From NCBI GenBank assembly GCA_030272155.1, contig CP126192.1:4188501-4252500 (forward strand): a stretch of 64,000 nucleotides of DNA, read 5' to 3'. Made by a program: the position numbers and the translations under genes. This document shows positions 855 through 58,914 of this stretch, piece by piece. The stretch is from Tetradesmus obliquus (Eukaryota; Chlorophyta; Chlorophyceae; Sphaeropleales; Scenedesmaceae). Under the pieces are notes generated by a model that worked only from the letters and a program-made list of their open reading frames with translations, was not told the DNA's origin and did not search any database. Within the stretch, counting starts at the first letter, position 1; each line of letters starts with the position of its first letter.

Positions 855-877
855 GGCGGGGGAGGGGGGGGGGGCGG
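855..877 (+). other. G-rich tract, quadruplex-prone
   Basis: A run of guanines broken only by single A and C residues, containing at least four runs of three or more G. It could fold into a G-quadruplex on the plus strand. It is in a gene-free stretch and I see no associated gene feature. Confidence 0.55.
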
Positions 878-1629: not shown

Positions 1630-1653
1630 GGTGATCGCTCCTGAGCGATCACC
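1630..1653. repeat. 11-bp inverted repeat with 2-base spacer
   Basis: GGTGATCGCTC at 1630-1640 is matched by its exact reverse complement at 1643-1653. It lies about 120 bases beyond the stop codon of the minus-strand coiled-coil gene, so it may sit in that gene's 3' untranslated region. The role is unknown. Confidence 0.7.
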
Positions 1654-1772
1654 GCGTGGCTGTGCAAGAACTGCCAATGCTTGACAACAGCATCCCAGCA
1701 AGCGCCCTGTCCCACAAACTCACCAAGCGCAAGCACCTTCTGATAGGCACTGCCCAGCTCTCCCACGCACCA

Positions 1773-9900: not shown

Positions 9901-11519
9901 GGACACGTGAGTGCAAGTGACCTCTGCTGCTATTATTTAATCTGCTTCCTGCTGTAGCAAGGCTTATCGACTATGGCAAGCATGCAGTGTTGTGTGCACA
10001 CGGCTGTTCAGAGGATCCTGCTAGTGTGAGTGTGTTCCGGGTGCCGGCAGTTTCTGCAGGTGCACAGCTCCGCCTGCGTATCATGCCGTTTCCTCTGTGT
10101 GCACAGCAGGCAGACCCGCATGCTACTCTTCTGCTGCATTCTGCCCGCGCTGACAATTGCCCTATCCTCGCACACTGGCCGTAATGCAGGGTTGTCTCGG
10201 CGCACCTGCTGTCACAGCGCTCGAAGCTCTTCCTGGCAGCCTACAGCCAGCTGGCAACGTGGCAGGGCGAGCTTGTTGCTGCAGGCCTGAAGCACTCGCC
10301 CACCAGCATGCACCAGCTGCTGACGGCGCTGGACAGGCTGGGGTATGTGGACGACTGCCTGCAGCTGGCCAAGCTCAACGAGGAGAAGAAGACCGGCACC
10401 TTCAAGGCCCATCAAACAGCACTGCAGGTGCGCTGCAGCCGAAACATGCCTCATGCGCAGCAGGGCGTGCAGCAGCTGGGGGTTAGGTTGTGCCGTGCGG
10501 CATGCAAATTCAAGCATCTTGAGATTTGATGCTTGCTAGTGGTACTTGAGGAGCTGTGCTGTGCTGGCGCGTGGCTGCGCATTGCCTTTTGCCAATGTGG
10601 TTGTGGGTGATACTCGGAGCTTTGAGTGCCTGTGTTGCCTGGCACCGGCCTGCTGACCTCATCTTATCTTGCGTGTACAACCTTCTGTGCATGCCGGTCC
10701 GCAACGTGTTCTGTTGTTGCCGTGTGCGTGCAGGCCGCCAGCCGCAGCCGCATGGTGAAGAATGCCAGCAATGCAGTGGACCTGGCCAGGAGGCTGGCTG
10801 CAGGCGAGGCACTGGACAGGCTGGGGTACACCGCACTCATTGCAGGCAACTTCTGGATCAGCCGCGACCACCAGCAGATGCTGGACACTGTGAAAGCCAT
10901 GGTGGCGGCAGGCCACGAGCCAGACGAGAGTGTGCTGCTGCAGATGCTGCACGTGTACTGCACGAGCGGCATGTGGGGCGAGGCGCTGTCGGTGCTGGAT
11001 GATGTGGCGGCAGGCAGGCTGGGCAGCATCACCAGCAGCAGCAGCAGCAGTTCGTGGCAGCATGATGGCCGCAGCAACAGGGACGCTGAGGAGAGGCGAG
11101 GGCTGCAGCAACAGCCGACGGCAGAAGCTGCGCCAGGCGGCGCAGGCCGTGGCTGGCGGTCAAGGCGGTATGCGGATGACCTGTTAGACAGCGAGGATGC
11201 GCTGCAGGCTGGCGGCAGCAGCGAAGTACGGCAGCAGCAGCGTGAGCAGCTGGCTCATGACAAGCTGTGGCATGTCGTGCTGCGCAAGCTGTGGCAAGCA
11301 CGCGCGTCTGATACATTGCTCAACGACTTCTTGAGCCGCATGGACCCACAGCAGTTGCAGCGCTTCAAGTTCCTGTATAACCTGCGGTTGCTGCCAGATG
11401 GGAAGTACAGCATGCAGCCGCCGGAGGATTGGGAGGTGCAGCCGGTACCTGACGGCGCGCAGCAGCAAGCAGGTGGTGAGGCAGCAGCAGTGAAGCAGCT
11501 CGCAGCAGAGCAGCAGTAG
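6970..11519 (+). CDS. Organelle-targeted PPR protein
   Basis: Seven exons join in phase: 6970-7062, 7155-7262, 7451-7946, 8179-9266, 9554-9906, 10190-10427 and 10734-11519, giving 1053 residues. The N-terminus MRRSVTRALQQHLLRRHCST is Arg-rich and amphipathic, as in mitochondrial or plastid presequences. Pentatricopeptide-type helical hairpins are clear in exon 5 at about residues 610-680 (VHYECLAESYALHQDVAAAE, then SYNRLLNGIAMYGDMAAATR) and weaker in exons 4, 6 and 7. PPR proteins bind organelle RNA and act in its processing, stability or translation. Between the helical parts lie Ser-, Gln- and Ala-rich stretches, for example after residue 31 and around residue 500. No DYW or SMR domain is seen at the C-terminus. 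The RNA target cannot be told from this sequence. Confidence 0.82.
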
Positions 11520-39436: not shown

Positions 39437-42400
39437 ATGCAGGCCAGCAGGCTCACACCACTGTCTCGTTCATGCTCAAAGTACACCAGAAGATTAAACG
39501 TGCCTTGTGATCGCAAGCCTACGGTCATACGCTGCCAACACCCTCACAGCATCTCGGCAGACAGGACTGAGGCCACCAGTACCACCAAGAAAAACACGAT
39601 TCGTGTGCATTACCACAGGAGGGACCTGAACTACGCCGTGAGATACTCTCGGGCACGACAGCGCAGCTGATCAGCTGCTGGCACCTGCTGCTGTCAGACT
39701 GCCAACAGCACTGCTGTTGCTGCTCAACATCGGCACAGTGCAGTAGGGTTGCTACCCGCCCAGCAGCCCCTGTGCAAAGCAGCATCAGCCATCAGTCAAA
39801 GCACAGCCAAAAGGTGTCAATATTTGTGTATGAGACACCTTCCTCAGCTGCTGTTTGCAAATCGCCCTGCCTAGAGAGGCAGCGGCACTGGGAAGGATGG
39901 GCGCTGCACATCACTGCATCGATCACTGTGTGCGCTGCGCCGGCTGCATGCTGTGCAGGGCTGGGGCTTGCACATCTGGGGTGATGTAGAGCATCCAACA
40001 CCCTGGAGCAGTGCAAAGCAGCCGACTGGCTCAGGGCCTGAGGGGCCTTACTGGGACGTGGTGCTGCAGACCTCAGCCAAACATGTGGGGCTGCTGATAC
40101 ACAAGGGCGAAGAAAAGGCGGCAGGTGACAGCAGCTAAAGCATCCCACTGCAGAAGCAGATGCAGGTCGTGCACATACCAACAGACAGGTGTTTGTCTGA
40201 GAGGCATGCAAACAAAGCTTAGGCTGCGTGATCTATATCCGTTGTTGCAGCAGCTGGCAAGCGCAGGGAAACTGCATGCCCCACCCTGTCTACTGAAACA
40301 CCTCATCGGTTGAACATGCATTTTGCTAACAATTTGCGTGCGTAAGAGCCCGATCTGGTGCAAGTAGATGCAGGTTCGTCTCCAAGGTTTTGCAAAGTAG
40401 TGCTCGCTGATCAAGTTTCACAAGCACGGCAGCCTTAGGGCAACAGCGTGTGTCAATGCGTGCGTCCTGCATGGGACGCACTGCACCCATAGGAAAAAGT
40501 GAGCTCTGCTTGTAGGCCTGACCCTTGGGTTTGTTCCTGCTGGTGCTGCTGGTGCTGGTGCTGCTGATGCTGCCAGGTGCCGAGCACGTGGACCCCAGCA
40601 AGGCTGGCGAGGTGTGGCTGGTGCAGAACGAGCAGCACCCCTTCTTTGAGGTGCCCGACATGAGCCACATCCCAGCAGGCACGCTGTTCAAGAGCTACGC
40701 GCACTGGTGAGAGCAAGCAGCAGCAACAGCAGCAGCAGCAGCAGCAGAGCTCGAGGCCAGCTTGCAGCATGAGCAGCAGCAGCAGACATAAGTAGCAGGG
40801 ACAGCAGCTGGCTGCTCATCACATCTGTGAGCAAACAGCAAGCAGCGACGTACCGCTTGCCTCAGCACTGAACAAAATCAATTCTTTCAAGCGCGCACTT
40901 CAACCAGCTTGCACTAGGTGAGGTGTGAAGGCAAGAACCTTCCCACACAGTATCAGCCAAGGCAGACTGCCGCATGCGCATCTGCACCCCTGCGCCACGC
41001 TACAGCCTGTTCAGCAACCTGCTATGCTGTGCCACATCATCATGCCGCAGGGTGAAGGCCAGCAGCCTGGTATGGCGTGTGCAACGTGGCATTTGCAACG
41101 TGCCTGCCTCTGCATGGCACCACTGCACCACACTACAGCTTTTTCAATGCATGCTGCTGACTTCTGTGTCACTTTGCTCACACTTCCAACAGGGTGAAGG
41201 CCAGCAGCCTGGTGTGGCGCGTGCCTGTGAGCGAGGATGGGGAGCTGAGCAGCCCCCAGCGTCTGTTCCAGCTGCACTTCAGCAGGGACAGCAGGATGCA
41301 CGTGACAGGTGCGGCCGGCGTGATGGATGTGGCATGTGGCATGGCGCCTGGGCTGTACACAGCGGGAGCTTGCAGCAGACTGTCGGCTTTTTAGAATTGC
41401 ACTTGCGGTTCAAAACGGTATGGATGGAAGTTGAGCAAGGTTTGGCCTTGCTCGCAAACGCAGCAGGCAGCAGCGGAGTACACATGGGAGGGCACATGAC
41501 AGCTGCGCATCATATGTCTGCAGCTGGTATGTGACTGATGGAGCCCAGCCATGCACAGCAACCACACCACCAGTGTTTTCATTTCCTGTTGTGCACTGCG
41601 TATCTCCACATTCGAATGCCTGGCCATGTGACAAACCGCTCAACATGCAGGCAAGGGCATTGAGGGTGCCGATGAGGTCATCCCGCTGCGCATTGCCGGG
41701 CTGAACATCCCTGCTGACGTCATGGCCAAGTACCCGCACCTGTTTGGCAGCACACACCTGGAGATCGACCCTCAGCACATGCACAAGGTGAAGAGAGCGT
41801 ACTGCATTAAGAGTTGCGCCTGCAGCCTGACACCTCCCCAGTAATGCTAAGCAGGGTGGAGCTATGCGCTGCCTCCTTTACCTATGATGTGCTGCACTTT
41901 GCCACACAGTCCGTAAGTCAACACCGCCTGACGTGTTGCACACTAGCTGCGGGTACACCTGCCAGCGGACACCACAACATCACCAGCGCGCCCTCTTATA
42001 ACTGTGCAGCATCAAACTGTGTCAGTACGCTGTGCTGCGGCTGTCGCGCTGCTGCAGGTGCGTGAGTATTGCAAGGGCCAGGTGGCGCTGAGTGTGCAGA
42101 GCCACACGGGGCGCGTGCTGGACTGCACGGGTGTGCAGCTGGCCGGCATGCTGGACGACCTGTTTGCGACAGACGAGCCGCTGGGCGACCACATCGGCAG
42201 GGACACCAAGAGCCGCGCAGTCAGCGTGTGGGTGAGTTGCTGCTGCTGACACTGAGACTGCATTGTGCATGTAAGCGTTTGAGCAAGTGGTAGGCAGATG
42301 ATGTGCTCAGAATGGATGATCCCAGCCGAAGCTGTGAAGACTTGCGGCTGCAGTTGCAGACGTTAGTGATGAGGCAGGCAGGTGCATGCTATGCTGCTGC

Positions 42401-42618
42401 AGTGTGGCGCATGGCGACCTGTATGTGTAGTTCTACTGTTAGTGTGGTGCACTTGGATGTCGTGGGGGATTTAACGCCTGGATGTTGCATTTCATTGCGC
42501 TGATTAGCAAGAATTGAACTGAAACTGCTGTGCCTGCCTGCCTACCTGCGCCCTGCCCAAGCACAGCCCTGCTGGTCAAGAATTTCAGTGGGAAGTAAAC
42601 ATGCAACCAGTTTGCTTG

Positions 42619-42702
<84 letters not shown>

Positions 42703-45700
42703 CCCACTTGTTCAAACGCTGGTCTTGCCCTGCAGGCTCCCACCGCCAAGAAGGTGGAGCTGCTGCACTTCTGGGAGCTGCGGGGAGGGCAGCCGGAGGT
42801 GCTGCCCATGGCCTGCAGCGAGCGTGGCGTGTGGAGCTGCGCGCGGCCCGCGGAGTGGCAGAACACGTGAGTGAGGCAGCGGGGCAGCATCTCATGGGCG
42901 GTGCATAGCTGTCAGCAACTTGCACAGCACTGTACTGATTGCTGGTGGGTGGTGTGTGGTTGGCTTGCTGAGCGGCTGGTGTTTGCTGGTAGTATGCCCT
43001 GCTGGCTCTGTGCTAATTATAACAATAGGCCTGTGGAGTACTGAGCAGCAGACAGTGGTGTCTTCCTGTCTCAGCTACAGTAGCAAGCACTCTTTTTTGA
43101 CTCACACAACCCCCCTGCATCCACCGCCTGCTCCGCAGCGCCTACAAGTTCCGGGTGACGGTCTTTTGCCCCTGGACCAACCAGATTGAGACAATGGAAG
43201 CCACGGACCCTTACAGCCGCTGCACCACTGCTAATGGCGAGCGCAGCATGTTTGTGGACATGGACAGCCCCCAGCTGATGCCGCCTGGCTGGTGGGAGCA
43301 CCCTGTGCCGGGGCTGGTGCACTGGACTGACGTCAGCGTGTACGAGCTGCATATACGTGACTTCAGGTGCGGTGCTGGGGCATGTGGTCTTGGTTTCGTG
43401 AGTCTGCTGCGTTCTTTGACAATGCACGCGGTAATGGGCGCGCATGGTGCCCTTCTTCTGTCGTTGATCACTGCAGATGTTAGCATGTACGAGCTGCACC
43501 AGAGTATCATCCTCACCGTGCATCCCTCATCCTCGCGTCCTTTCATGTGCTGTTTCATATACCTGCAGCGCCACGGACCCCACCGTGCCGGACCACCTGC
43601 GTGGCAAGTACCGCGCCTTCTGCAGGCAGCACCTGTACCCCCAGGAGCCCCGCCGACTGAGCAACGGCCTGGCACACCTCAAGGGGCTGCAGGAGGCGGG
43701 CATGAACCACGTGCACCTGCTGCCCACATATGACTACGGCAGCGTGCCTGAGCGGCCGGAGGAGCAGGCACACGTGATGGTGAGATGAAAGTGACTACTG
43801 CTGCTGCTGGTGTCATGCCTTGCTGCTGATAGTGAGGGCGCGTGGCATGCGTGCTGGCATGTGTGTTGTTGTGCAGCTGCGGATCCTGGTGCACGGCTGC
43901 TGCAGCTGCTCAGCTGCCCTGGGCTGCCTGCTGACTGGCCTGCCGGGGTTCTTCTGCACCCGCAGGAGGACCTGTCGCACCACGCGCCTGACAGCGAGTA
44001 CCAGCAGAGTGTGGTCATGTCAGTGGCTGACAGGGACGGCTTCAACTGGGGGTGAGCTGTAGTTGCGGCGCGCATGTGCAGCTGCAGCCTGCATTACGGC
44101 CTGAACAGACAGACAACATCACAAAACAAAACAGTGCTGTGAGCAAGCAAGCAAGCAACCAACCCCCTGTGAAAGCTCCGCTGCATGACGAATGCAGCTG
44201 CTGCAGCCACTCAAGCTGCTGCATCAGCTGCATGCGTTGCCTGTTATGGCACTTGCCATAACTTTGCAGCTTTATGCTGCCTACTTGGCACTTGTGCGCC
44301 TCAACTTCACTCATTTCCCTATGTCTCCCGCCAATATCACGCAGCTACGACCCGGTGCACTATGGTGTGCCGGAGGGCAGCTACAGCACCGCGCCTGATG
44401 GACCGCTGCGGGTGCTGGAGTTCAGGGAGATGGTGCAGGTGGGCCACGCTGCAGCAGCAGTGGGGCCCAATGCTCGTTCAGCTGTGCTGCCTTTTGACAT
44501 AAATGCTGAAGTTGATAATAGAAGGAGACCGTGCGGGCACCTCTTGTGTTGTTCAGTGCCGAGAAGCAGGGCAGGTTGCTGAGTGTGATGTGGAGGCCAA
44601 GGGACACTGCAGCTGGGCCTGCTTACGATTCACAGTTTTAGCGCCTGTGCTGTGACCGCCGCCGTATTGCATTTCGCACCAGTCCACACTGCCGCAGTCT
44701 TCACGGCAACCCAGGTCACGACGCCTTGCTGTGCCGCTGCTGTGTGTTGTGGTCTGTCATGCTGCAGTCGCTGCACAGCCTGGGCCTGCGCGTGGTGCTG
44801 GACGTGGTGTACAACCACACCTTTGCCAGCGGACCCTACAGCCAGAACAGCGTGCTGGTGCGTGGCAAATCTGCTTTATGTTCTGTTTAGCAGCAGCTCC
44901 TGTGTGTTGCACGCCCTATCATGCCGAGCAGGTTCTGCTTTTTAGCGCAGAAACCAAGGGCAATACGGCCGTCTGCGTGAATCAATCAAGCATAGCTGTC
45001 ATGCCGCTTGCGTACACGACTTCAGCGCAAAGTACAGGATCCACATGTGCGCTGGTGCAGCATGCAACATACCAGGCTGAGAGCACTCAGGTTGACCTGT
45101 TGGCTGCGGGTGATGCTGATGCTGATGGTGCTGCCGCTGCTGCAGGACAAGATTGTGCCAGGCTACTACCACAGGCGGCAGGAGGACGGCGAGATGTGCC
45201 ACAGCACGTGCTGCAACAGTGAGCACAGCGCTGCAGCATCCCTGCAGCTCCCCTGCCACATCCTGCACGGTCAGCAGCAGCACTTTGGTATTCTCACTCT
45301 TTTTGGCAGGCTATTATGCTGCAGCATTGTCATATGCCTCGCTGCACGCTTCCTGCTGGCTGCCCATACGGGCGCTGTTGCCGCACCAATCTGACACAGC
45401 CCCTCCTGCTGCATGGCTGCAGACACTGCGAGCGAGCACCGCATGTTTGAGCGGCTGATGGTGGAGGACCTGGTGCACTGGGCCAGGGACTACAAGGTGG
45501 GAGTGCAGCGACAGCGGGAGGCTGTAGGGCAGCGCTGCTCTGCTGTGCTGCTTGTCACTTAGTGCATGGCATGCAGGGCACGGAACCTGCCAGGCGTGTC
45601 TTACCGCGCCAAACAAGTGCACGCTGGCATTGACATGAATGGCACGCACAAAGCCAACACACACAAAGCCAACACTATTGCTGTGCATAATCTACGGCGG

Positions 45701-48387
45701 GTCGACGGCTTCCGCTTCGACATCATGAGCCACCACTTTGTGGGCACCATGATCCGCAACGTCATCAGCACACCCAGGGTCTGCTGCTGTGTCTGCTGCT
45801 GCTGCCGTTGCTGGCCACAGGTTGACGGCTTCCGCTTTGACATCATGGGCCACCACTTTGTGGGCAACATGACCGCCATCCGCAACGCCATCAACGGCCT
45901 CACCCTGGAGCGCGACGGCGTGGACGGCCGCAAGATGTACATCTACGGAGAGGCGTGGGACTTTGGCGAGGTGGCGCTGAATCAGCGCGGCCGCAACGCC
46001 AGCCAGCACAACCTGGGAGGGTCGCGTATTGGTGCCTTCAACGACAGGTGGGTGAGGTTTGTGAATAGAGAACTTGCATGTTATAAGCATGCCAAGCAGG
46101 GTGGGAGGTGTATGGGCGGGTGCAGCAGGGGTTGTGCCGCAATGTGGCGGGGTTGTTGCGGGGTTTGGTTGTGCAGTGAGGAGCAGGCCAATTTTGGCGC
46201 TGGGTGGGGTACATGGCTGCAGCATAATGGCGCCATGTGGCGGGCCTAGCGCTGCAACACGAGCCATGTGATGTGGCAGGTTGCTGCATATTCCAACGCC
46301 AACCGCAGATCTAGGTGCTGCAAGCAGCAAAGAGGAACGGCGCAACCGCAACCACAATCCTGAGGGCCACATGCATGCAGCAACCCTGTGCATGTACTTT
46401 ACTTCGCTGCAGGATGCGTGATGGCGCCATGGGCGGCAGCCCCTACCAATCGCCAGACTGCCAGGGCTTTGCCACAGGCCTGGCAGTGGACCTGAATGGT
46501 GCGCAGCACCAGGGCTCAGCCAAGGAGCAGTTGGCCACGCTGCTGCACCGCACGGACTGGGTGCGCTTCGCACTGGCGGGCAACCTGAAGTGAGTGCTGT
46601 GGGCTTGTTGGTGGAGAGTTTGTTGTGCAGCGGCATTGCAGCAGAGGGTTCAGCCTCTGAGTTACAACTCTGCCTTCTGCAAAAGGATCATTGAGCATCT
46701 GCCGCATCAATCAACAGCGTGGATCAAACACTGCAGCCTTTCACGCCAGCCACACGTGTGCCTGCTGCTGCCATATGCCTGCAGGGACTATGAGGCTCAG
46801 GTGGCTGACGGGCGGCTGGTTGCGGGGCAGCATGAGACCTACCACGGCAACCAGCCGCTGGCATACGGCTGCGATCCAGCTGAGAACGTCGTCTTCAACG
46901 GCTGCCATGACAACGAGACCATCTTTGACCAGGTGCGGCACATTGCCCATCATGCATTGCTGGGCGGAGGATTGAGTTGGACAGCAGACGAGCCCAGTCT
47001 TGTGTGGGGAAATGGGCATGGCTGCTGGTGGAGCAGCAGGTGAGTTGCAGGCATGGTGACTAACAGCAGGACAAGGGGCTCATTGCACAAGCTGAAGCAG
47101 CAGCCATCCATGCTGGTAACAAGCAGGCAGTACTGATGCCTTGTTCCTGCTGCTGCTGCTGCTGCTGCCAGGTGATGATGAAGCTGGGCAGGCACGTTGA
47201 TGCCGACGGCCGCGCGCGCGTGTGTGGGCTGGCGCATGCGCTGCTGGTGCTGTCCCAGGGTGTGCCCTTCATCCATGCGGGAGATGACCTGCTGCGCAGC
47301 AAGAGCCTCGACAGGGACAGCTACAACTCAGGTGCGTGTGTGGCGCAAACCGGGAGTGCAAATTTGTTTGTGTGCAGGGAGATGAACATATGACTTGTGT
47401 GGAAGAGGGCTTGCAATGCATGCGTGCCGGTGGTGTCCCAGCCTTGCTGCACAGGGAGTGGCATGGCCGAACACATATATCTCCTGGTGCAGCATTGCTG
47501 GAAAGGTGCACAGCTATGCATCTCCATTGGTTCCTGACAGTCAAGCAGCCGTACATACGTCCTTTTACATACACTGACACAGCGGTGTGCCGGCCTGTTG
47601 CTGTGCCTGCAGGCGACTGGTTCAACCGCATCGACTGGACAGGCCAGCACAACAACTTTGGCATCGGGCTGCCGCCTGCCAGCAAGAACCAGCAGGCCTG
47701 GGAGTTCAAGCGGCCGCTGCTGACTGCAGCCGACCGCTACCGGCCTAGCCCAGCCATCATTGCTCGCCAAGCGGCGTACTTCAAGGCCCTGCTGCGGGTC
47801 AGGTGCGTGGTGTGCTTGGTGTGGCCCGCTGTGCCGGCCCGCGCTCACGCACTGGCTGTTGTCTAGGAAGTGCTGCATGCTGCAAGCGCATACACCACGA
47901 TATCTGGCTTCTGCTTTGAGGGCGAGGCAAGCTATTGTCTTGCGGTTGTGTCCATCCATGTCTTGCCTATGTGAAACCCGCTGCGCATGCGCGTGTGCCT
48001 GCTGCTGTTGCTGCCTCATTTGCCTGCAGGTACTCTTCGCCGCTGTTCCGCATGCCCACCGGCGAGCACATCCGTCAGCAGCTGCGCTTCCACAACACAG
48101 GCCCGCAGCAGGTGCCTGGCGTGATTGTGATGCAGCTGCACAGCAGCTGGCAGCCGGACCACGGCAGCTGGGACCCGCAGTACAAGCAGGCGCTGGTGGT
48201 GTTTAACGCAAGGCCAGAACCCTATGAGGCTGAGTTTCCTGAGGGAGCAGAGTGGTACAAGCTGCACCCTGCGCTGGCTGCACTGCAGGAGGATGCGATG
48301 GTGCAGCTGTGCAGCGCAGATAATGAGAAGCGGCGCCTGCACGTCAGCCCCCGCATGGCAGCAGTGTTTGTGCAGCCGCGCTCATGA
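39437..48387 (+). CDS. Limit dextrinase (pullulanase), plastid starch debranching enzyme
   Basis: Twenty exons join in phase: 39437-39637, 39959-40124, 40577-40706, 41193-41308, 41651-41787, 42058-42231, 42736-42866, 43139-43366, 43569-43779, 43966-44051, 44345-44438, 44768-44857, 45146-45218, 45423-45496, 45821-46047, 46413-46589, 46785-46932, 47172-47331, 47613-47802 and 48030-48387. They give 1056 residues. A transit peptide of about 50 residues is followed by a CBM41-like domain ([32 protein letters not shown]). A GH13 catalytic domain ends the order. Conserved sites are [17 protein letters not shown] with nucleophile D644, YGEAWDFG with acid/base E681, and CHDNETIFD with D814. NNTASEH and VYELHIRDF also match plant limit dextrinase. 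The enzyme cuts alpha-1,6 links of branched glucans during starch breakdown. Introns 3, 8 and 14 hold diverged copies of neighbouring exon edges, and intron 6 a long TGCC repeat. Confidence 0.95.
41048..41082 (+). repeat. Intronic copy of the start of limit dextrinase exon 4
   Basis: These 35 bases match 41190-41224, which cover the acceptor CAG and the first 32 bases of exon 4, at 33 of 35 positions. The copy lies 142 bases upstream in intron 3 and keeps the AG acceptor. Similarity stops abruptly after position 41082. Confidence 0.85.
42617..42704. repeat. (TGCC)22 microsatellite in limit dextrinase intron 6
   Basis: Twenty-two uninterrupted copies of TGCC fill 88 bases and end 32 bases before the acceptor of exon 7 at 42736. 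On the sense strand the repeat is half pyrimidine and may serve as part of the acceptor tract. Such a pure tetranucleotide array is likely to vary in length between strains. Confidence 0.97.
43474..43499 (+). repeat. Intronic copy of the end of limit dextrinase exon 8
   Basis: This segment resembles 43332-43357 of exon 8. Translated in the same frame it gives ADVSMYELH against TDVSVYELH in the exon. It lies in intron 8 and is directly preceded by CTGCAG, an acceptor-like sequence. No in-frame stop lies between the exon and the copy. Confidence 0.75.
45701..45769 (+). repeat. Intronic copy of the nucleophile exon of limit dextrinase
   Basis: These 69 bases match the start of exon 15 (45821-45895) with one 6-base deletion and six substitutions, two of them silent. 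In the same frame the copy reads [17 protein letters not shown] against [17 protein letters not shown], so the catalytic Asp is kept. The base pair before the copy is GG rather than AG, so it lacks a matching acceptor. It ends without a clear donor. Confidence 0.92.
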
Positions 48388-48940
48388 TGATGATACGAGT
48401 TTGTACTTCTGCGTCGGTCATGGGAGGATGGGCTTCCCGACTGATGAGGTGGTTGGTGGTGGACTAGTTTGAGCATCAGGGTTTTGGCAGGGGGCAATGT
48501 TTGAAGTGGTCAGCTCAATGCAGCTTGTTTCAGCTGCGTGTACGCCCCAAGCTGATAGTTCTGGCTGTATTTTATCGGACCATTGTGCGATCGTTGTCCT
48601 GCACCTCGCTGGGCGGCATTGTTGAGTGAACACCTGAGGAGTCTGTTGGTCGCTTGCGTACTCGTTTTGGCAAGGCACTCTGCTACATAAACATATACTC
48701 TTTTCATTAGCGTCAGGAAGCCAGTTATGGTGGCAGCTGCACTGGAAAGACATTTGGCTTGCATGCTATGAAGTGGCATCACAGTTCTCAGGGCGTTACA
48801 GGACTCCATCACGTCTTTCTGTAGCTCTAAGGAGTGATCGCTGGATCGAACAAACTTGTCTGCTGCGCCAACAGCTTGTCAGCAGTAGGGGCATGCCACC
48901 CAGCCCACCGTTCAAGCTTGCCAGCTGACAACACGGCGAT
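48388..48940. other. Intergenic region, limit dextrinase / glycosyltransferase
   Basis: Holds the limit dextrinase 3' untranslated region and the promoter of the next gene, both on the plus strand. No motif was recognised. Confidence 0.5.
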
Positions 48941-51900
48941 ATGCAAACGCTACCACCGCACCCGATGCCCTCTCAGCAAATGGGCTGTGGCCGTGCAGCT
49001 CGCAGCATGCATGCCCTGCAGCAACACCAACAGTGTGCTGAGGTGCTGGCCCAGCAGCTGGCTGCAGGCCTGAAGGGCCTGCCGCAACAGCAGGCTCAAA
49101 TATATAGAAACAGCCCCGTCACTGAACCTGTACACAGCAGGCAGAGTGATGGTGATGCAGCGGCTGGCAGCAATCGCCAGACACAGAAGATGCCTCCAGC
49201 AGTGGAGGTTGTTGATGCAGCTGGTGGGACTGCAGGGCAGCCCAGTTCAGCAACTAGCTCAGAGACACGAGCAGCAGCAGACTGGTCGCCTGAGCATGCA
49301 GGACAGGAGGCTGCAAGGAACAGTGAGGAGCCGGTGCAGCAGGCCTCTGCTGCAGCGCTGCTGCAGCCAGCCAGTGGCAGTGGCCAGGCAGGCAGTGTGT
49401 ACCAGCCTAGTGAACAGCAGCAGCGGCAGCAGCAGCAAGAGCACCTGGCCGGACATATACAGCAGCAGCAGCACCCGCGGCAATTGCGATCAAATCCTGA
49501 TGCAGGACAGCCGCAGTATGTACAGCAGCTGCTGCAGCGTCAGGGTGCTGCTGCCAGCATGCAAGTCAACCACCAGCAGCAGCAGCAGTTCTGCACAGCT
49601 GTACAAGCAGGCAGGCCCTGGGGTTGGTGGAGGTCGTCTGCTGCTGCTAGCATGTGGCAGGCGATGGACCAGCTGCGGCAGCCGCTGCTGCAGGCACACA
49701 GCCTGCTGGGCTGCAGCGCCAGCTCACATCAGCTGCTTGAGCTGATGTGTCCTGAGGCAGCGGCAGCAGCAGCAGGCAGCGGCAGCAGCAGCAATGCGCA
49801 GTTCTCCGAGTGTTGGAGGCTGCTGCAGGAGCATGCGCAGTCAGCGCAGCAAGCCAAGCAGCAGCAGCAGCAGCAGCAGCAGCAGAGCTTGCTGCAGCAG
49901 GAGCTGCACACTGCTGACCATGCAGCCTGTGTGGAACTGCAGCAGACGCAGCAGCAGCAGCAGCAGCAGGCTCGGCAACCGCTGCTGCCACCACGACAAC
50001 CTCCACCGCAGGCGCAGGAGGAACAGGAGAAGCAGCTGGAGCTGGAGAGCTGTCAGCCCCAGAGGCGCGCTGCTGCTGCTTCCGCTGCTGCAGCCAGCAG
50101 CAGGCAGGGCCCTGCTGCAGATGCTGCAGTGCCACCTGCTGTGCAGCAGAAGGCAGCACAGAGGAAGCCAGCAGCAGCAGCAGCGCGGCCGCCCATGCCC
50201 AAGCCACCAAAAAAGCCGTGGCAGCCGAAGATGGCGCCAGATGACAGGAACTGGAGGAAGGTGGGTTGAGGCAGCTTGGGAAACGGCTTGCAGGACATGA
50301 CTCTCGGGCACACTTGCAGGACATGAGTGCAGGGCAACCACCAAGTTAATTTGCAAATGTTGCAGCAGCCGTAAGTGATCAGCCCTTTCTTGCTGTGGCT
50401 CTGGTTTGCGGCATGTTTGCCTTCATATAGGGCTGCTGTTGGCTAGATTGCCAGCTCACGCGTCTCACTACGGTATTGTGATGCTGTCTCTATTACTGCT
50501 GCCCCTGCTGCTCCGACCATCCGCTTGCAGGACAAGTTCAGCAGCGTGTCAGCACGCGCAGACGCTGAGCTGTCGCACCGCAGGCAGCTGCAGCAGCTGC
50601 ACCCGCTGCCTGACCAGGACACTGCTCACTTTGCCATGCTGATGATGCTGCACAGCGCTGGCTGGCCCAATGCCGAGCTGTGGGAGCAGTGGCAGCAGCA
50701 GCACGAGCCAGGAGAGGTCACCATGATGGTGCACCTCAAGGTGGGTGGGGCTGGGCTGGTGCAGCGCTGCTTGTTATGAGGTAGTTGCAGCGGCTGCGCT
50801 GGCAGCTGCGGGAACAGTAGATGGGCAGGAGAGTGTAACATGTTGCCTTGCAGGAAGCGGCTAAGGTAGCACAGCATGCAAGGGCAAAGCAGGCGGGGTT
50901 AAGTTCGCTGCGCTGCTGCCTCAGTTAGCTGAAAAACAATGAAGTGATGCGCTGTTGCTGTCTGGCACACGCCCTGTCACTGCGGCTGGCGCCACACAGC
51001 TGCATCCCATGCTGCAGGCATGCAGGCTCCTCCTGCATTGCAGTCACAGATCACATCACTCATCTTACACACTCTTTGCACCACTGCACATGTTCCTGCA
51101 GGCCGGCGTGGACCCTGCGTCTGTCAGGACTGGCCGCGAGGCCATCGCAAGCCGCAAGCTGGCCACGTCTGTGGAGGCCAACTGGGGAGACATCAGCCTA
51201 GTAGAGGCGCAGCTAGACAGCATGGGGGAGCTGCTGCGGCGCTGCCCACACGTGACGCATATTGGGCTGGCCAGCGGGCATGACCTGCCACTGCAGCTGA
51301 TCAGGTGCGTGGTGTGGCTGTAGTGTGTAGTGTGGCCACTGCCAGCGGCATGTGGTTGCGGTTGCTGGGTGCACTCGCCGTTGCCTGCCATGGGAGTTGT
51401 GTTTAGGATTGTTGACACTGCTGGCATCGGCTTATTGCTGCCATTCCTGGTGGACCCTCGCTCCCACTGCCTGCTAACTCACACACACGTGTGTTGCTGA
51501 ACCCTTCAATTTCGTTCCTTCTCCGCGCACAGGCCTGGCCTGCTGCTGCCCGGCGTGTCCATGTTTGGTGCGTACCAGTTCCCCGAGGTTGAGACGCGCA
51601 CGCTAAAGGTTGCCGCACTCGATGCGCTGGTGGATGACCTGGAGATGGACCTGACTGAGGCGCAGGACTGGGCGCAGGCGCTGACCTTCCACCACCAGTG
51701 GATGGTGCTGGCGCGAGAGCATGCGGCCGCGCTGGTGCTGCTCACCAAGGAGATTGGCGTGGTGAGTTATGCTGCCATGTTTTGACGTTTGGCACTCAGT
51801 AGGCACAGTGCGGAGGTCGGGGAAGCAGCTTCATGTTGCGTGGGCGGACTTGCTGCTGGCCAAGGAGATCGACGTGGTGAAAGGCAACAACGCTTGCGGT

Positions 51901-53393
51901 CGGAACCATCTCTAAGAAGCTGCTCTACAGCAAGCAGGCATGCGTGTCGTTGGATGTGCCCGCGGTGCCGAATGCGCCGCGCTCCGTTTTGCATCCGCAT
52001 CTCTTGCTGCACAACATTGCGTGCAGGTGGGGCGCGCCATCCACAAGGCCTGCAACAGCGTGAAGGCAGGCATGGCGCCAGACGAGTTCATCCTGCTGAC
52101 GGCGCTGCGCGCGCACGGCTGCGTGCGCAGCGTGCAGCGCGTGGAGCTCAAGCCCGGCATGCGCTACCCCCCTGGCACGCTGCTGAACAGCTACCCCACG
52201 CTGGTGCTGTTCCCTGCGGAGAGCAGCCCGCACCCGGTGCTGTGGACAGACATGGACAGCAAGACTGAGTGCCAGGTGGGACAGTTGGCTGGTGTTCACC
52301 TGTGGTGTGTTGCAAGGAAAATCGGCATGCATACGCGACCTTCCCACATGTGACGTGTTAGCCTTGGAGAAGGCACGCAGTATCTGCATCTGCGTGGCGG
52401 TCTAGCAGCCTAACCTGGAGATCCTGTTTGCAGCGTTTGGACTGTCTCTTGCATGGCAGTTGCGCCTAATGGCATGCCGCTCCTCACTTGCAGACGATGC
52501 AGCGTACCCTGCAAGGTGCATCTTGCTCACACTGCGCGTCGTGTGCTTGCGCTGACCGTGCTACACGCTCACTGCCTGCCTGCGTGCTGCTGTCCTGCAA
52601 GGTGGAGCGCCACACTGGCCAGCAGTACTTCAAGCGCATGAGCCTGCGAGAGTGCCTCAAGGTGTCAGTGGACCGCTGCGCCATCTTCTTCCGCAAGGTG
52701 TGGGCACTGATAGCCTGGGCAGCTGCTGCAGCTGCCTGGATCCAGCGCTCAATGTTTGCAGGCTGTGTTTGGCACCTCCCAGATGGACATGCACATGCAC
52801 ACATCATTGTTTGAGCACCTGGTATTAGCGCCTGGCTAGCTCATCCTTGATGCGTTCGCGCTAATGGAATTGCTTGTGTGTTATTGCAGGTGGAGATGCG
52901 GGAAGAAAAGGGTGATGGAGGGCAGCAGGTGCAGAAGCTGCTGGAGGTGCTGCAGCAGCTGTGGCACGGCGGCAGCAGCGCAGCGCGCAAGGGGGCCAAG
53001 CGCAAACGGGGCGCATCGCAGCAGCGAAGCAGCAAGGTGCGGCCTGCAGCTGGCTGTGCGCGCTGTGCAGATCATGCAGTAGCGTGCTTTCAAACTTGTA
53101 ACTTGTGGCGTACTTGCTGCTCTGCAAAACCTGCAAGACAGGGGATGCAGGTGTGCATGCAACTCTTGTCACCATCGGCGTTGGCGGTGCTGCTCACTAA
53201 CTGCTCGATTGCCTGCTGCTGTTGCGTGCTGCAGGGCTCTGGAACCAAGCGCGATGCTGCTGGCGCCACTGACAGCGCTGCCTCCTCAGCAGCAGACAGC
53301 GAGGCAGCTGCTGGCTCAGGTGATGCGGAGGAGGGTGATGAGGCAGAGACACCTCCGAGGCCGCAGCGTAAGAGGGCAGCGCGGAGCCGCTGA
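48941..53393 (+). CDS. GT14/DUF266-like glycosyltransferase with Gln-rich N-terminal extension
   Basis: Eight exons join in phase: 48941-50260, 50531-50740, 51102-51304, 51533-51761, 52027-52275, 52602-52697, 52890-53036 and 53235-53393, giving 870 residues. Exon 1 (440 residues) is low complexity, rich in Gln, Ala and Ser with runs of Gln, and ends in a Pro/Lys-rich segment. Residues about 460-790 resemble the core-2/I-branching (GT14, DUF266) fold: HFAMLMMLHSAGWPNAELWE, NWGDISLVEAQLDSM, ASGHDLPLQLI, HHQWMVLAREHA, PDEFILLTALR and FFRKV occur in the family order. These enzymes transfer sugars to glycans, usually in the Golgi. Here no signal peptide or membrane anchor is visible, and the C-terminus is basic (KGAKRKRGAS, PQRKRAARSR), like nuclear signals. 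The acceptor and donor are unknown. Exon 1 could belong to a separate gene, but its donor and frame fit exon 2. Confidence 0.66.
51851..51880 (+). repeat. Intronic copy of the end of glycosyltransferase exon 4
   Basis: Thirty bases resemble 51736-51765, which span the last codons of exon 4 and its donor, at about 25 of 30 positions. Read in the exon's frame the copy gives LLAKEIDVV against LLTKEIGVV. The GTGAG donor has become GTGAA in the copy. Confidence 0.7.
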
Positions 53394-54356
53394 GGTGGCA
53401 GCTGCAAGCTGCTACAGCAGCAGCTGCTGTGCGTGATGCAGCAGAGAAACATGGGGGCAACGGCAGCAGCGGTTGCTGCTGACTTGTGCACCTCACAGGT
53501 GTGCTTGTAATGGGAGTGGCTTTGCAAGTTGACGATGTGATCAATCTCTGCTTGTCTGGTTTCAGCTGCTTGGTGTTTGTTGGGGTGGTGACTGGATGCG
53601 GCAGGGCTGTGACAGGGTGATGCTTGGGTAGTCTGCAATAGCGCCTGTCGTTGTTTGAACAGCTTGTACGGCAAATAATTGACAAGGGCACAACAACTGT
53701 TGCTCATGGTGTGAGTTTTGTTTGTATATGCATGCAGGCTGTAGGCGTTCAGGTGCACCAGAACAGCACGTTATTTGGAGGGGGTTTTAATGTTGTTACC
53801 TCTTTCAGTAGGCCGCTGGCTTGCTGTCACAAAGGTGTGCTAAAGCTGACAGGGCATGTAACTTGCACTCCAACATTGGAAGCGCCGGCAACCGGCTGGA
53901 GCATATTCTTGCTTGTGGTCGATGCAATGACGGGCACTGGATTTTATTAGTTTAGGACGTTATTCTTACAGCGGATCGTTTGGGCCATGGCCAGGCCTTC
54001 ACCTGGTCGTCAATGGCCCCAAGGTTTCAAAATTTCAATAACATGTCACCACGTGGGGTGCGATGCTCGCGTAGTTGAATAGCCACCAGACAAGACTGGC
54101 ACAACTGTTGAAGCGTAGCGCTGCCCCATTTAGCACCGGTTTCCACCAGATCCAACAACACGTCCTGACGTTCGCTCTTGAGCACATGTAGCCGTGACGC
54201 ACTATGTGTTTGAGCATAGCAGGATTTTCTGACGTTAGTCATCGTTCCTTTACAGACGCTTGTCGAAGCATTGGGGAAGTGCCCACCGGAACAGTTGCAA
54301 CTGCAACAACAGCACACTGTGCCCTTTCTGGCTGATCTAAGTTTTCAGCAGCTAGC
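53394..54356. other. Intergenic region, glycosyltransferase / PP7
   Basis: Holds the glycosyltransferase 3' end and the PP7 promoter and leader. A TGTAA motif at 53506 is listed separately. No other feature was recognised. Confidence 0.5.
53506..53510 (+). terminator. Candidate TGTAA polyadenylation signal, glycosyltransferase gene
   Basis: A TGTAA pentamer lies 113 bases after the stop codon, a typical spacing for chlorophycean genes. The motif is short, so chance cannot be excluded. Confidence 0.4.
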
Positions 54357-56700
54357 ATGGAAGTCACAGCAGCTGTAGACACACCCATGCAGCCTCTGGA
54401 GCTGTCAAGTGGCATCTCTGCAGAGTTCTGTCTGCAGCTGGAGCGCAGCCTGCACAAAGCGACATGGGCAGGGGTTGCAGCAACACAGCAAGTGCTCACT
54501 CCCCAGGTGCTGCAGTCGATTGTGATGGGTGTAGCGCCACTCTTAGAAAAGGAGCCCACACTCATAGAGGTGAGGGCCTGCTGCTATCCTGCAGGCGGGC
54601 CAGCAACAGCAGTGCATACAAAGTTGACGTCTGTGTGATGCTGCGCTGCAGATTCAACCGGCAGCACTGCAGCAGCAAGTGACAGTGGTGGGCGATACAC
54701 ACGGGCAGTTTCATGACCTCTGCCGCTTGTGAGTGGCTGCGGCGCAGCAGCCAACCTTAGGCAGGTGCTGGTTTGCATCATGCGCAGCAACAGCTGCAGA
54801 ACTGTTTTTAAGGAGCCAGCTACTGCTGTGGGTGCCTCTGCTGTACGTGTTACTCAGCAGCAGCAGAGATGATTGCCACGGCAGTGCCCAATCAGTTTGA
54901 AAGATGAGGGTGTACTTGTGACATGAGCAAGAACTCTACTGATTGCCTGCGCCCGACTGCCTTCAGGTTTGAGCTGTACGGGCACCCCTCAAGCGACAAG
55001 GTGTACATCTTCAATGGGGACTATGTGGACAGGTGGGCTGCAACACACCTGTTGACATGCAAACATACAAAGCAAGCCGCATACACAGTTGTCATTAGCC
55101 CACGCCAGTTTTCATGGTTGAGCACCCACCACAGCAACAGGGCAGCAGTGGCGCAACGTGCTGCTCCCGTGACTCTGCACATCGTCTGTCCTGGCCGTGT
55201 GTCATGTGCTGCAGGGGCGCCTGGGGCGTGGAGACGTTGCTGCTGCTGCTGGCGTGGAAGTGGGCGCTGCCGCACAACGTGTACCTGCTGCGTGGCAACC
55301 ACGAGACCAACACCATCACCCGCATCTACGGCTTCTATGCAGAGCTCAAGGCCAAGTACGGCGCAGCATCCAAGGTGTGCAGGCGATGACAGAGCGCCAG
55401 TTTCATGTTCGTTGCGGTTGAGCAAGCAGCAGGGTACGGCCAGCTGCCTACAGCCTAGCAGCAGGTGTTGCTGTTCAGCAGGCACTCTCAGCAGCCACAC
55501 ACTGGCCACAGCACAGGCTGATCACTGTCTGCCGTAGCAGTGCCTGATCCTCGCTTTGTTGCTGGCTCTTAGTGCATCATTCAGGCCCATGTTCAGTATG
55601 GCCCATGTGTGACCTGATGATGTTGTTAACATGTATGTTATTGTTACATGCTGCTGCCTGCAGGGCCTGTTCACGGGCATCAGGCGGCTGTTTGCGCACC
55701 TGCCGCTGGCTGCGCTGGTGCAGGGCGCCAGCCTCATCCTGCATGGCGGCCTGTTCAGGGCGCCACCCAAGAAGGGCAAGGGTGCCAAGCGGCGGCGCGC
55801 ATCAGGTGCGGCGCTGCAGCAGCTGGCCTTTAAGAGGCTGCGCTAAGTGATGCGTCAGAGTGCAAGTCCCTGCCCTACCGCCAGGTGTCTGTTACGACGT
55901 AGCCGCTTGCATACACCAACACAACCTCTGTCTCATTTTTATTTCGCTTATGTATTTTCTGCCTTTCCTGCGCTTGCAGGCGTGCAGGCGCTGACCCTGG
56001 GCAGCCTTGATGACCTGCGCAAGGCCACAAAGGGCGGCCAGGACCCGGACCCTGAGCGTGAGCACAACAGCTGCTGCTGCTACTGCTTTTGATGCCAGCC
56101 CTACAGCCCTGCCAGATCAGCAGCTGCACACTGTGCAGCACAGCACTCTCTGCTGCATCGGGTGCCTGCTGTGCTGTAACCTGTCTGGACGCGCAACGGC
56201 CAGCAGCTGAGAGCAGCAACATGCAGCATGAATGCTAGTCATGCCAGCCTGCTGGGAAACTTCACAGTAGCATGATGTCAGTAACTCACGTCATGCCCGC
56301 AGAAGATGTGGATCGGCCTGTTCACTGGACCACTCAGCCTGTACGTATGTGTGTGCTGGTTGGTGTCCCTGCAGGCAGCAGCAAGAACTTCATTGCGAGT
56401 GATGTCATGTGGAGCGACCCAGTCAATGCGCCAGGGCTCAGACCAAATGAGGCACGGGGCTGCGGCACAGTCTATGGGCCAGACGTCACACAGGTGAGGC
56501 TGCAAAACAGGTGCTGCAAGCTTTACACTGAATCTGGCGCATGTCAGGGTACAGGTGCAGCTCTGCCAGGTGAAAAATGTTTGTGATGTCGGCAGGGTAC
56601 TGGTGGCTGGAGGTACAAGGTGGGTGCAGTTGTGGTGCTGCACTGCCGTGCACGCAGCACCACTGCTGCAGCTTTGGCTGGCTTCTGCTGCCGAATGACG

Positions 56701-56739
<39 letters not shown>

Positions 56740-58914
56740 AGGCCTTCCTGGCTGACAACGGGCTGCGGCTGATCATCCGCTCGCACGAGGGCCCTGACGC
56801 GCGCGACAAGCGGCTGGAGGGCGAGCGCATGCCCAGCGTGGACAGCGGCTATGCGGTGGACCACAACACGCCCAGTGAGTGGCTGCGCGACACGTCAGCA
56901 CTGAAATGAGTGTGCGAAAAGTCACCTTAGGATTGGGGGTGGTAAACATTGTGGTTGACCACGACACGCCGAGTGAGTGATGCGGCTGCCAGGCCATGCA
57001 CTGTACTGCCAGCGCTGCTAGTAGCAGCAAGTGTCGTCAGCAGCTACGCGGTAAACCACGACACGCCCAGTGAGTGCTCGATATGTCAGCACTTCAGCTA
57101 GACATGCTTTTGGTTGCAGTAAGCAGGGAGAAGGTTGTCCCAGCAGCAACAGTGAGTGCCGCGTTAGTCGCAGGGCATGCATGTCTCCTTTGCTGCTGCC
57201 ACTGCTGCCTGCAATCACGCGCATTGTTTGCGCCTGCTGCTGCATTGCTGGCTGCAGGTGGCAAGCTGGTGACGCTGTTCTCTGCCCCAGACTACCCACA
57301 GGTGGGGCTGCGCACGTGTACCTGGGCACGCAGGACGCACTGGTGTTTGCGTGTGCACTCGCGTCAGCAACTGTGTTCATGTGCATGCATTTGGTTTTTT
57401 TTTTAAATCAGTCACAGGTAGCGCAAGGCACGCCTTACCTAGCCTTTATGGGTATACATGTTGGTAGCTGTTGCCTGATGCCAGACGTACTACGATCATT
57501 GGGATCCTTGTGGTGCGGCCTGTGCCTGGGTGTCCCACTGATGTTAGATGCTACCTCTGTTGCCACCTGCTTGCATGCTGCTGTGACACTGAGGTGTCCG
57601 ACAACAATCAGCCTCAACACGTGTTGGTTTGTTGGCCTGAGCGCATGCTTGTTCACTTACCGTGCCGCAGTTCATGGCTGAGGGTGAGGAGCGCTACCAC
57701 AACAGGGCGGCGGTGCTGCACCTGTCAGCCCCGGACTACGCGACACCAGCAGTGGAAAGCTTCGAGGCAGTGCTGCCACGGCCACATGTAAGCAGCAGAT
57801 ATGGTGTGGCCGTGCGAGATATGGCAGTGCTGGGGTGTATGGCAGCTTTGCTTCTTGTCAATCATGCATGGCTCCCGCCAGGAGAGCAGCAGGCAATGCA
57901 CGCTGCGCGCTGACTAGCACCTCTGTTGTGATCATGCCCTGCAGCATGAGATTTCAAGTCAACTCCTCAGCTGCCAGCTGCGTAATCACCTGCAGCCATG
58001 CATTCATGTATAAGAACAAATTAATGCATAATCCCCTGCAGCCATACATACATGTCATAGCTGCTGCACAGCTGCATGGTTCCACCACCTCCGCAGCATG
58101 TCGGCCTTGGGTAGGCCCTACCCAAGGGGCCTCTGAAGGCCTGCCACTGCATCCCTTGCAGCTGTATCAGCATGCCTATGTGTGCTTGTGCTTACTTGCT
58201 GCTGCTGCTGTGCTGCTGCCATGCCAGGCTGAGAGCTACTATGACTTGCCCAGCTGGACTGACGATGATGATGAGCTGGCAGAGGAGCAGCAGCACCCAG
58301 CAGGCAGCACGGATGCCAGCGCGGCAGCAGGCACAGCAGATGAGGCAGAAGAAGAGGCGCTAAATGCGGGCTCAGCAGACAGCTTAGCAGCAGCGGCAGC
58401 AGCAGCCAAAGCAGCAGGTGGGACGCAAGAGCCTCAGCTGGATGTGGCAACAACAACAGCAGCAGCAGCAGCACCCATTCAGCTGCAAGAGGCGCCAGCT
58501 GGCTGCTTGCCTGTGGGCCTGCAAGAAGGCTTGCAGGATGCAAACGGCAGCCAGCAGCAGCCAGGGCAGCAGGTAGAGCTGCTGAGCAGCAGCAAGGTAC
58601 CTGAGCCTGGCAGCCTGTGCAGCTCAGACACTGCTGTGGCAGACAGGCAGCAGCAGCCACAGCAGCAGCATGATGCAGCACAGCTGCAGGGGCATGTCAG
58701 TCAACTGCAGCAGCAGCAGCAGCAGCAGCAAGGCATAGCTGAGAAGCTGCAGGGTGTTGCAGCTGCAACTATGGTCGCGGCAGGCGGCTGCGAGGCAGTC
58801 AGTGGCAACGCGGTTGCCGCTGCTGCTGGTGCTGCAGATGCAGATGCCCCTGACCAACCAACACCAGTACGACCAGTGAAGCGCCACAAGGTGGATCCAG
58901 AAGCTGTTGAGTGA
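54357..58914 (+). CDS. Ser/Thr protein phosphatase PP7
   Basis: Eleven exons join in phase: 54357-54569, 54652-54728, 54967-55032, 55215-55374, 55664-55805, 55980-56057, 56375-56493, 56742-56874, 57258-57301, 57671-57787 and 58228-58914, giving 611 residues. The metal-binding PPP motifs are GDTHGQ (85-90), GDYVDRG (114-120) and RGNHE (145-149), followed by HGGLFR and SAPDYP. PP7-specific features are GAWGVETLLLLLAWKWALP, a basic insert after HGGLFR, and DVMWSDPVNAPGLRPNEARG. IIRSHEGPDARDKR and SFEAVLPRP complete the match to plant PP7. PP7 of plants acts in light and stress signalling and can bind calmodulin. The last 229 residues are an alga-specific acidic and Gln-rich tail starting SWTDDDDELAEE and ending in the basic PVKRHKVDPEAVE. 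That end could be a nuclear signal. Intron 8 holds two copies of the exon 8 end with its splice donor. Confidence 0.94.
56700..56741. repeat. CTG repeat forming an intron acceptor tract in PP7
   Basis: About thirteen consecutive CTG triplets run into the CAG acceptor of exon 8. The triplet repeat replaces the usual polypyrimidine tract. Confidence 0.9.
56951..57093 (+). repeat. Two intronic copies of the exon 8 donor region of PP7
   Basis: The junction of exon 8 with intron 8 (about 56845-56902) recurs twice downstream. Copy 1, at 56951-56980, covers the last exon codons and the GTGAGTG donor. Copy 2, at 57039-57093, matches 32 of 37 bases across the same junction and also shares GTCAGCACT further on. 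Both keep an intact GTGAGT donor. Confidence 0.87.

What the first reader, a model, noticed from the sequence alone, without database searches (positions are those of the whole stretch)
41048..57093. Recurring decayed copies of exon edges inside adjacent introns of three neighbouring genes
Seen directly: at least five introns (limit dextrinase introns 3, 8 and 14; glycosyltransferase intron 4; PP7 intron 8) contain a diverged copy of the exon edge next to them, 100 to 200 bases away, in the same orientation. Several copies keep the splice-site dinucleotide. Inference: introns in this genome may grow, shift or arise by local tandem duplication across exon-intron junctions, leaving decoy splice sites or incipient alternative exons. 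Seeing it in three adjacent genes and not in the other ten suggests a regional or recent process.
Basis: partly seen in the sequence, partly recalled or inferred. Interest (0 to 1): 0.72.

Follow-up and report, generated by a model that had tools for sequence, protein, structure and literature searches.

The report
Tandem duplications straddling exon-intron junctions
In what looks like a green alga's genome, stretches of about 95 to 155 bases that straddle the border between exon and intron are repeatedly copied next to themselves, so that introns appear to grow and to fill with decaying look-alikes of real exon edges; it happens on several chromosomes and misleads gene prediction.

Summary
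In detail: three of the five copies are far above chance, one (glycosyltransferase) clearly above, one (limit dextrinase intron 8) only probable. They are local tandem duplications crossing an exon-intron junction; the outer copy stays exon, the inner one decays inside the intron. The "regional, recent" inference fails: in 334 kb from nine chromosomes, junction-crossing events occur on seven, and several are denser than the window. Of 44 duplications with offsets of 90-160 bp, 38 cross a junction, against about 67% expected of non-exonic events (p=5.5e-5 overall; 17 of 19, p=0.025, where gene models are cleanest); shorter units show no excess. Exon-copy differences fall 50/43/114 on codon positions 1/2/3: a neutral copy beside a constrained exon, not an intact second allele or random error. 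A PP7 paralogue 183 kb away has one matching copy and lacks another, which argues for evolution rather than misassembly. Introns with copies are longer (median 324 vs 232). Duplications across an intron-exon boundary are known from single cases; the frequency and preferred size look new, the junction bias probable. Its cause is inferred, not shown.

The parts
41095..41224 (+). Limit dextrinase: predicted working acceptor junction (41192/41193) and unit; 32 bp exon + 98 bp intron
   Evidence: Alignment to 40962-41082, 100/133 identical columns, spacer 12 bp
40962..41082 (+). Decayed upstream copy of the same junction inside LD intron 40707-41192; AG kept
43320..43351 (+). LD exon edge (15 bp inside donor 43366) that is probably copied downstream
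   Evidence: score 33; weakest of the five
43469..43498 (+). Probable decayed copy in LD intron 43367-43568; GT lost (by eye)
45820..45908 (+). LD acceptor junction (45820/45821) and exon start [15 protein letters not shown]
   Evidence: exon chain supported by the barley limit dextrinase alignment
45700..45778 (+). Decayed copy of that exon start in LD intron 45497-45820; AG lost, 6-nt in-frame gap; 41-bp spacer, no intron part recognisable
51736..51765 (+). Core-2/I-branching-type glycosyltransferase: exon edge and donor 51761/51762
   Evidence: Pfam Branch, E=2.5e-8
51851..51880 (+). Copy of that edge in intron 51762-52026, GT kept
56835..56902 (+). PP7-like phosphatase: exon edge and donor 56874/56875
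   Evidence: Pfam Metallophos
56950..57003 (+). First downstream copy (offset ~98) with GTGAGT kept; colinear with the paralogue's own exon edge, so the window gene has one unit more
57030..57093 (+). Second downstream copy (offset ~195) with GTGAGT kept; colinear with the single copy in the paralogue at C2:4428101-4428900

Best explanation
A stretch of about 95-155 bp that straddles an exon-intron junction (typically 32-102 bp of exon plus the neighbouring intron) is duplicated head to tail, often with a few extra bases between the copies. Splicing keeps the outer splice site next to the intact exon. The inner junction is left inside the intron as a decoy, the intron gains one unit, and the decoy decays without constraint; some sites expand into arrays. 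SHOWN here: tandem geometry, the size class, near-neutral decay, occurrence on many chromosomes, and a colinear copy in a paralogue. LIKELY: excess at junctions and intron lengthening. INFERRED: the lesion, most likely a staggered break or pair of nicks whose overhangs are filled in and end-joined, occurring preferentially at exon borders (perhaps because exons and introns differ in composition or nucleosome occupancy); and that the outer site is the one used, since no RNA data are at hand.
For: Near versus far same-strand repeats, score 50 or more: 65 vs 0.5 expected. Offsets pile up at 95-155 bp: 44 of 93 events (score 40 or more) in six 10-bp bins, against 1 in the two bins below and 2 in the two above. 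Of 49 paired events at offsets 85-260, copies lie 12 bp or less apart in 29 and 20 bp or less in 37; 8 more overlap. Crossing: 38 of 44; random placement 37%; with an empirical detection penalty for intron-only events 38 of 41 vs 27.4, p=5.5e-5; on C2+C1 alone 17 of 19, p=0.025. Offsets 25-90: 0 of 17 cross by 8 bases or more, 3 touch a junction, as random placement predicts (about 2.7). Exon part mean 54, sd 18 (26 rows) vs 56, sd 36 at random, KS p=0.01. Codon positions 50/43/114. Intron/exon substitution 0.214/0.119, ratio 1.8 (a neutral copy predicts about 1.5). Introns 324 vs 232 bp. PP7 paralogue.
Against: Gene models are my own hidden-Markov predictions; few genes are anchored by homology. 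On the contigs other than C2 and C1 the model takes some decoys for exons: in 11 of 38 crossing events both copies carry exon labels. Gaps are rarer in exon parts than a neutral copy predicts (2.5 vs 8.4 per 100, ratio 3.4 against 2). LD14 has a 41-bp spacer and no visible intron part. Events cluster, so the p values are optimistic. Longer introns offer more room, so the length difference is not proof of growth. Nothing observed here identifies the lesion.
Confidence: 0.72

Rival explanations
1. Assembly artefact: diverged haplotypes of a diploid strain stitched together at conserved exons, so that the 'copy' is the other allele.
For: Would explain junction preference, both edges of one exon being copied, clustering and a read-length-like unit. 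A Scenedesmus strain of similar genome size is reported as likely diploid (PMC7955037, passages); that this genome is related is my inference.
Against: A functional allele should differ mainly at codon position 3 (my expectation: above 75%); observed 114/207=55%. Copies lack the splice dinucleotide in 6 of 24. An array of six copies in a glutamate-cysteine ligase gene cannot come from two haplotypes. A PP7 paralogue at a separate locus has a colinear copy. The 334 kb hold no N.
Confidence: 0.07
2. Duplications arise at random positions; the junction excess is due to detection, gene-model error or selection, with no mutational targeting.
For: Exon parts decay more slowly, so old junction events are easier to see; emulated detection of intron-only events is 0.59. 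With the cleaner gene models alone the excess is only 17 of 19, p=0.025. Offsets 160-320 and 320-625 show 13 of 17 and 8 of 15 crossing against 59% and 75% of random units, no strong excess.
Against: With all data the excess stands at p=5.5e-5 after the 0.59 penalty. Intron-only events are scarce in this size range (2 of 44) although they should be the least harmful, while at 25-90 bp they are the commonest class (9 of 17).
Confidence: 0.25
3. The copies are functional: alternative exon edges, or decoys that tune splicing or intron retention.
For: Splice dinucleotides kept in 18 of 24 copies; fewer gaps in the exon part than expected.
Against: First- and second-position changes are about as frequent as in a neutral copy; offsets are spread over all frames (16/13/15); retention of 75% is about what 12-20% divergence per site would leave (my estimate).
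Confidence: 0.08
4. Intron birth by tandem duplication of an AGGT-bearing exon segment (Rogers/Hellsten model).
For: Tandem copies next to exons.
Against: Where the intron part of a unit can be aligned it looks like intron, and most of the introns concerned are two or more units long with the copy near one end.
Confidence: 0.03

Closest known systems
Potato RdRp gene PGSC0003DMG402000361 (PMC4974935; start of abstract and passages seen)
   Same: A tandem duplication that crosses an intron-exon boundary, carrying the 3' part of the intron and the 5' part of the exon.
   Different: There a cryptic donor made a new intron in one gene; here the inner copy appears absorbed into the existing intron, on both donor and acceptor sides, in many genes.
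Tandem genomic duplication model of intron gain (PMC3443670 and PMC2891723; passages only) and internal gene duplication (Gao & Lynch 2009, named in PMC4974935; paper not held)
   Same: Local duplication inside genes creates duplicated splice signals.
   Different: No new intron is seen; units straddle existing junctions and have a narrow size range.
Small tandem duplications from fill-in at breaks with 3' overhangs (PMC8355091; abstract and introduction read)
   Same: Head-to-tail copies that end joining could leave; a plausible source of the units.
   Different: Described as the commonest short (<100 bp) insertions in the human genome; no exon-border preference in what I read. Here mostly 95-155 bp and concentrated on junctions.
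Introners (PMC9860276; passages)
   Same: Genome-wide, gene-centred intron change; some prefer nucleosome linkers.
   Different: Introners are dispersed families; the LD3 and PP7 stretches queried match no other place except the PP7 paralogue (that search skips simple repeats).

Membership tests
Local tandem duplication | Two same-strand copies, abutting, offset about equal to unit length | tested here: met
   29 of 49 paired events have 12 bp or less between copies, 37 of 49 have 20 bp or less; 12 are wider, LD14 (41 bp) among them
Local tandem duplication | More frequent near than far | tested here: met
   65 vs 0.5 at score 50 or more
[quoted passage not shown]
   Alignable units carry intron-type sequence and mostly sit in longer introns
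Introner / transposable element | Same sequence inserted at many loci | tested here: not met
   no other match except the PP7 paralogue. Searches list many other matches; those I looked at are CTG-type simple repeat, others look like paralogous exons. Only these stretches were queried, and the search skips simple repeats
Introner / transposable element | Terminal inverted repeats and 3-9 bp target duplications | not tested
   Not pursued once dispersal failed
Haplotype-stitching artefact | Copy behaves as an intact allele (synonymous changes, intact splice sites) | tested here: not met
Haplotype-stitching artefact | Inner copy absent from single long reads | not testable with these tools
   No reads available
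Tandem duplication by fill-in and end joining | Paired nicks or overhangs as lesion; dependence on Pol alpha/NHEJ | not testable with these tools
   Only short stretches between copies are seen (0-12 bp in 16 events chosen for small spacers)

The most novel reading that the evidence does not exclude
Exon-intron junctions themselves are hot spots for a distinct mutational process in this alga: it duplicates a unit of about 125 bp anchored on the junction (about 54 bp of exon), independent of donor or acceptor side, and steadily lengthens introns with decoy junctions. Exon borders would then be fragile or specially repaired DNA.
Probability: 0.35. Interest if true: 0.8.

Novelty: new variant of a known kind. 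Interest (0 to 1): 0.58.

Why it matters
Intron growth and the origin of decoy splice sites are usually inferred from isolated cases. Here is a sample with dozens of readable events, a preferred unit size and a probable junction preference, so the mutational step becomes testable by comparing strains and reads. Practically, the copies mislead gene prediction: my own gene finder apparently built decoy edges into several predicted proteins.

Tried and rejected
Chance and CAG/CTG low complexity: unmasked alignment is useless here (15% of unrelated 220-bp pairs score 50 or more); masked alignment with far-distance and reverse-strand controls settles it. Regional or recent process: rejected. Haplotype stitching: taken seriously because of the junction preference; rejected on codon positions, arrays and the PP7 paralogue. 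An early impression that exon parts were far too conserved for neutral copies was weakened by broader counts, though the gap deficit remains. A note said the three exon-only events all have offsets divisible by 3; that is wrong: two are 102, the third is 110 and is probably a mis-called junction event in the glutamate-cysteine ligase gene; I left it counted as exon-only. An apparent dispersed element in C11 is a CTG microsatellite. Searches (time-out; script error) gave no result; one search answered one search's question and one search replaced. No paper describing this pattern was found in the searches; these cover open-licence papers only, and most hits were seen as listings.
Full report
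Intron-rich genes, 53-61% G+C per 2 kb and the genome size suggest a green alga of the Scenedesmus/Tetradesmus kind; this naming is my inference, no call identifies the species. A Scenedesmus strain of similar size (103.4 Mb haploid) is reported as likely diploid (PMC7955037, passages).

OBSERVATION. Self-comparison of 39501-58500 shows three strong local same-strand repeats at gene edges (its other near hits lie in the repeat-rich 49.2-50.3 kb exon). Detailed alignment confirms the copies at LD introns 40707-41192 and 45497-45820 and at PP7 intron 56875-57257, the last with two clear downstream copies spaced about 97 bp. GT intron 51762-52026 reaches score 40 in the masked scan. LD intron 43367-43568 reaches only 33. 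The LD exon chain is supported by a match to barley limit dextrinase over nearly its whole length (E=4.9e-220), which joins the exons across these introns without the copies.

SAMPLE AND CONTROLS. I fetched 270 kb of further sequence for the scans (160 kb flanking on C2, two 20-kb stretches of C1, 10 kb each of C5, C9, C11, C15, C13, C7, C3), 334 kb with the window. I trained an ab initio gene finder on it. On C2 and C1, 411 introns of 50-700 bp gave 747 edge tests: at score 38 or more 12 own hits, 0 reverse-complement hits, 0.15 expected; at 34 or more 15, 0, 0.75; at 30 or more 20, 1, 3.1. A banded local alignment of all 334 kb finds 93 near repeats at score 40 or more against 1.0 per equal-width far band, and 65 against 0.5 at score 50 or more.

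ANATOMY. Offsets in 10-bp bins from 95 to 145 hold 8, 8, 9, 7, 5, 7 events; the bins at 75, 85, 155 and 165 hold 1, 0, 1, 1. Of the 44 events with offsets 90-160, 38 cross an exon-intron junction, 2 are intron-only, 1 intergenic, 3 exon-only. Random placement gives 37, 29, 10 and 24%. Simulation gives detection ratios of 1.0 to 1.65 in favour of junction events. A harsher empirical emulation, made from the intron parts of 18 events picked by hand as single-junction and nearly abutting, puts detection of intron-only events at 0.59. With that penalty and local gene structure, 27.4 of 41 crossings are expected and 38 seen, p=5.5e-5. On C2 and C1 alone it is 17 of 19, p=0.025; in 27 of the 38 crossing events one copy is wholly non-exonic, in 11 both copies carry exon labels. 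Of the 17 events with offsets 25-90, none crosses by 8 bases or more and 3 touch a junction, about what random placement predicts; at 160-320 13 of 17 cross, at 320-625 8 of 15. For 26 single-junction rows (PP7 twice) the exon part is 54 bp on average (sd 18, range 32-102), 13 at donors and 13 at acceptors; random crossing predicts 56, sd 36 (KS p=0.01). Of 57 events with offsets 85-260, 49 are pairs (12 bp or less between copies in 29, 20 bp or less in 37) and 8 overlap as arrays; the largest is six units of about 149 bp behind one exon of a glutamate-cysteine ligase gene on C5. Some exons have both edges copied, for example 10728-10885 of the first C1 stretch.

AGE AND CONSTRAINT. In 40 of those 57 events with at least 18 exon-versus-intron-copy columns (the other 17 were dropped), 207 of 1846 columns differ: 50, 43 and 114 at codon positions 1, 2 and 3. 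A neutral copy opposite a constrained exon predicts about 1:1:2; an intact second allele predicts a much larger third-position share; random error 1:1:1. In the 18 hand-picked events aligned end to end, substitutions are 0.119 in exon parts and 0.214 in intron parts (unrelated intron parts aligned the same way: 0.270); gaps are 2.5 and 8.4 per 100 (unrelated: 19.8). The gap ratio is larger than a neutral copy predicts and remains unexplained, although choosing events by score, to which exon parts contribute most, must play a part. The splice dinucleotide is kept in 18 of 24 copies. Offsets fall 16, 13 and 15 in the three frames.

HISTORY. The PP7 exon has a paralogue at C2:4428101-4428900, minus strand, 183 kb away. 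Its intron holds one junction copy at offset 92. The window's sequence from its first copy onward aligns with the paralogue's from its exon edge onward (266/393), its second copy falling on the paralogue's only copy; so the window gene has one unit more, at the edge. The copy common to both rests on this colinearity: in a 37-nt core the window's second copy is about as close to its own exon (31/37) as to the paralogue's copy (30/37), and the window's first copy is the more diverged from the window exon (27/37). The intron just after the window's working donor resembles that after its second copy, so the extra unit may have come by exchange between existing units, not by a simple fresh duplication; loss in the paralogue is also possible. 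A colinear copy at two separate loci argues strongly against misassembly at this locus. The LD3, PP7 and first-C1 stretches queried show no dispersed family.

DISTRIBUTION. Junction-crossing events occur on C1, C2, C5, C9, C11, C13 and C15, not in the samples of C3 and C7. Counts per 10 kb range from 0 to 8, variance/mean 2.76 against 1.98 for the 99.9th percentile of a random scatter. C2 has 14 of the 44 events in 224 kb; the other 110 kb have 30. So the three window genes are part of a widespread, clustered pattern. Introns with an event have median length 324 (n=20), without 232 (n=392), p=1e-5 (C2 and C1 only); longer introns also offer more room for events.

MECHANISM. Shown: head-to-tail duplication of junction-straddling units, position of the inner copy in the intron, near-neutral divergence. 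Inferred: staggered breaks with overhang fill-in followed by end joining, as described for small tandem duplications (PMC8355091, abstract and introduction), and a preference for exon borders. Nucleosome occupancy or the G+C step at exon borders are candidate causes; neither was tested. Selection against closely spaced decoys could set the lower size limit but does not explain why intron-only events of the same size are rare.

NOVELTY. A duplication crossing an intron-exon boundary is described in potato, where it made a new intron (PMC4974935, passages). Recurrence across a genome with a preferred size and a junction bias was not found in the searches named, which cover open-licence papers only. 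I rate it a new variant of a known kind. Limits: ab initio gene models, a non-random sample of 0.3% of the genome, non-independent events, no RNA and no reads.

Noticed in passing
window 42613-42704: A (TGCC)23 microsatellite, 98% matches, lies inside an LD intron; CTG/CAG runs are very common in the window and the fetched loci and swamp unmasked similarity searches.
   Followed up: partly
L029 (C5:1000001-1010000) 3767-4614: Six tandem copies (period ~149 bp) of one exon-edge/intron unit in a glutamate-cysteine ligase gene; my gene finder reads them as extra exons.
   Followed up: partly
L036 (C2:4428101-4428900, minus strand): A PP7-like paralogue on the same chromosome with the same exon 8/intron 8 structure and one junction copy; useful as a clock for the duplications.
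   Followed up: partly
L013, about 4880-5170 (window coordinates -35120 to -34832): A 77-bp minisatellite in an intron, nearly identical units (score 404 over 212 bp), young and not at a junction.
   Followed up: no
L031 (C11:1000001-1010000) 1-6400: An Oxidored_FMN (old yellow enzyme-type) gene and a neighbouring gene in which many exon edges are duplicated; apparent paralogous matches on C1 and C7 could show which copies are new.
   Followed up: no
L025 and L026 (first C1 stretch) 9376-11187: Four neighbouring introns of one predicted gene each hold a copy of an adjoining exon edge; two exons have both edges copied.
   Followed up: partly
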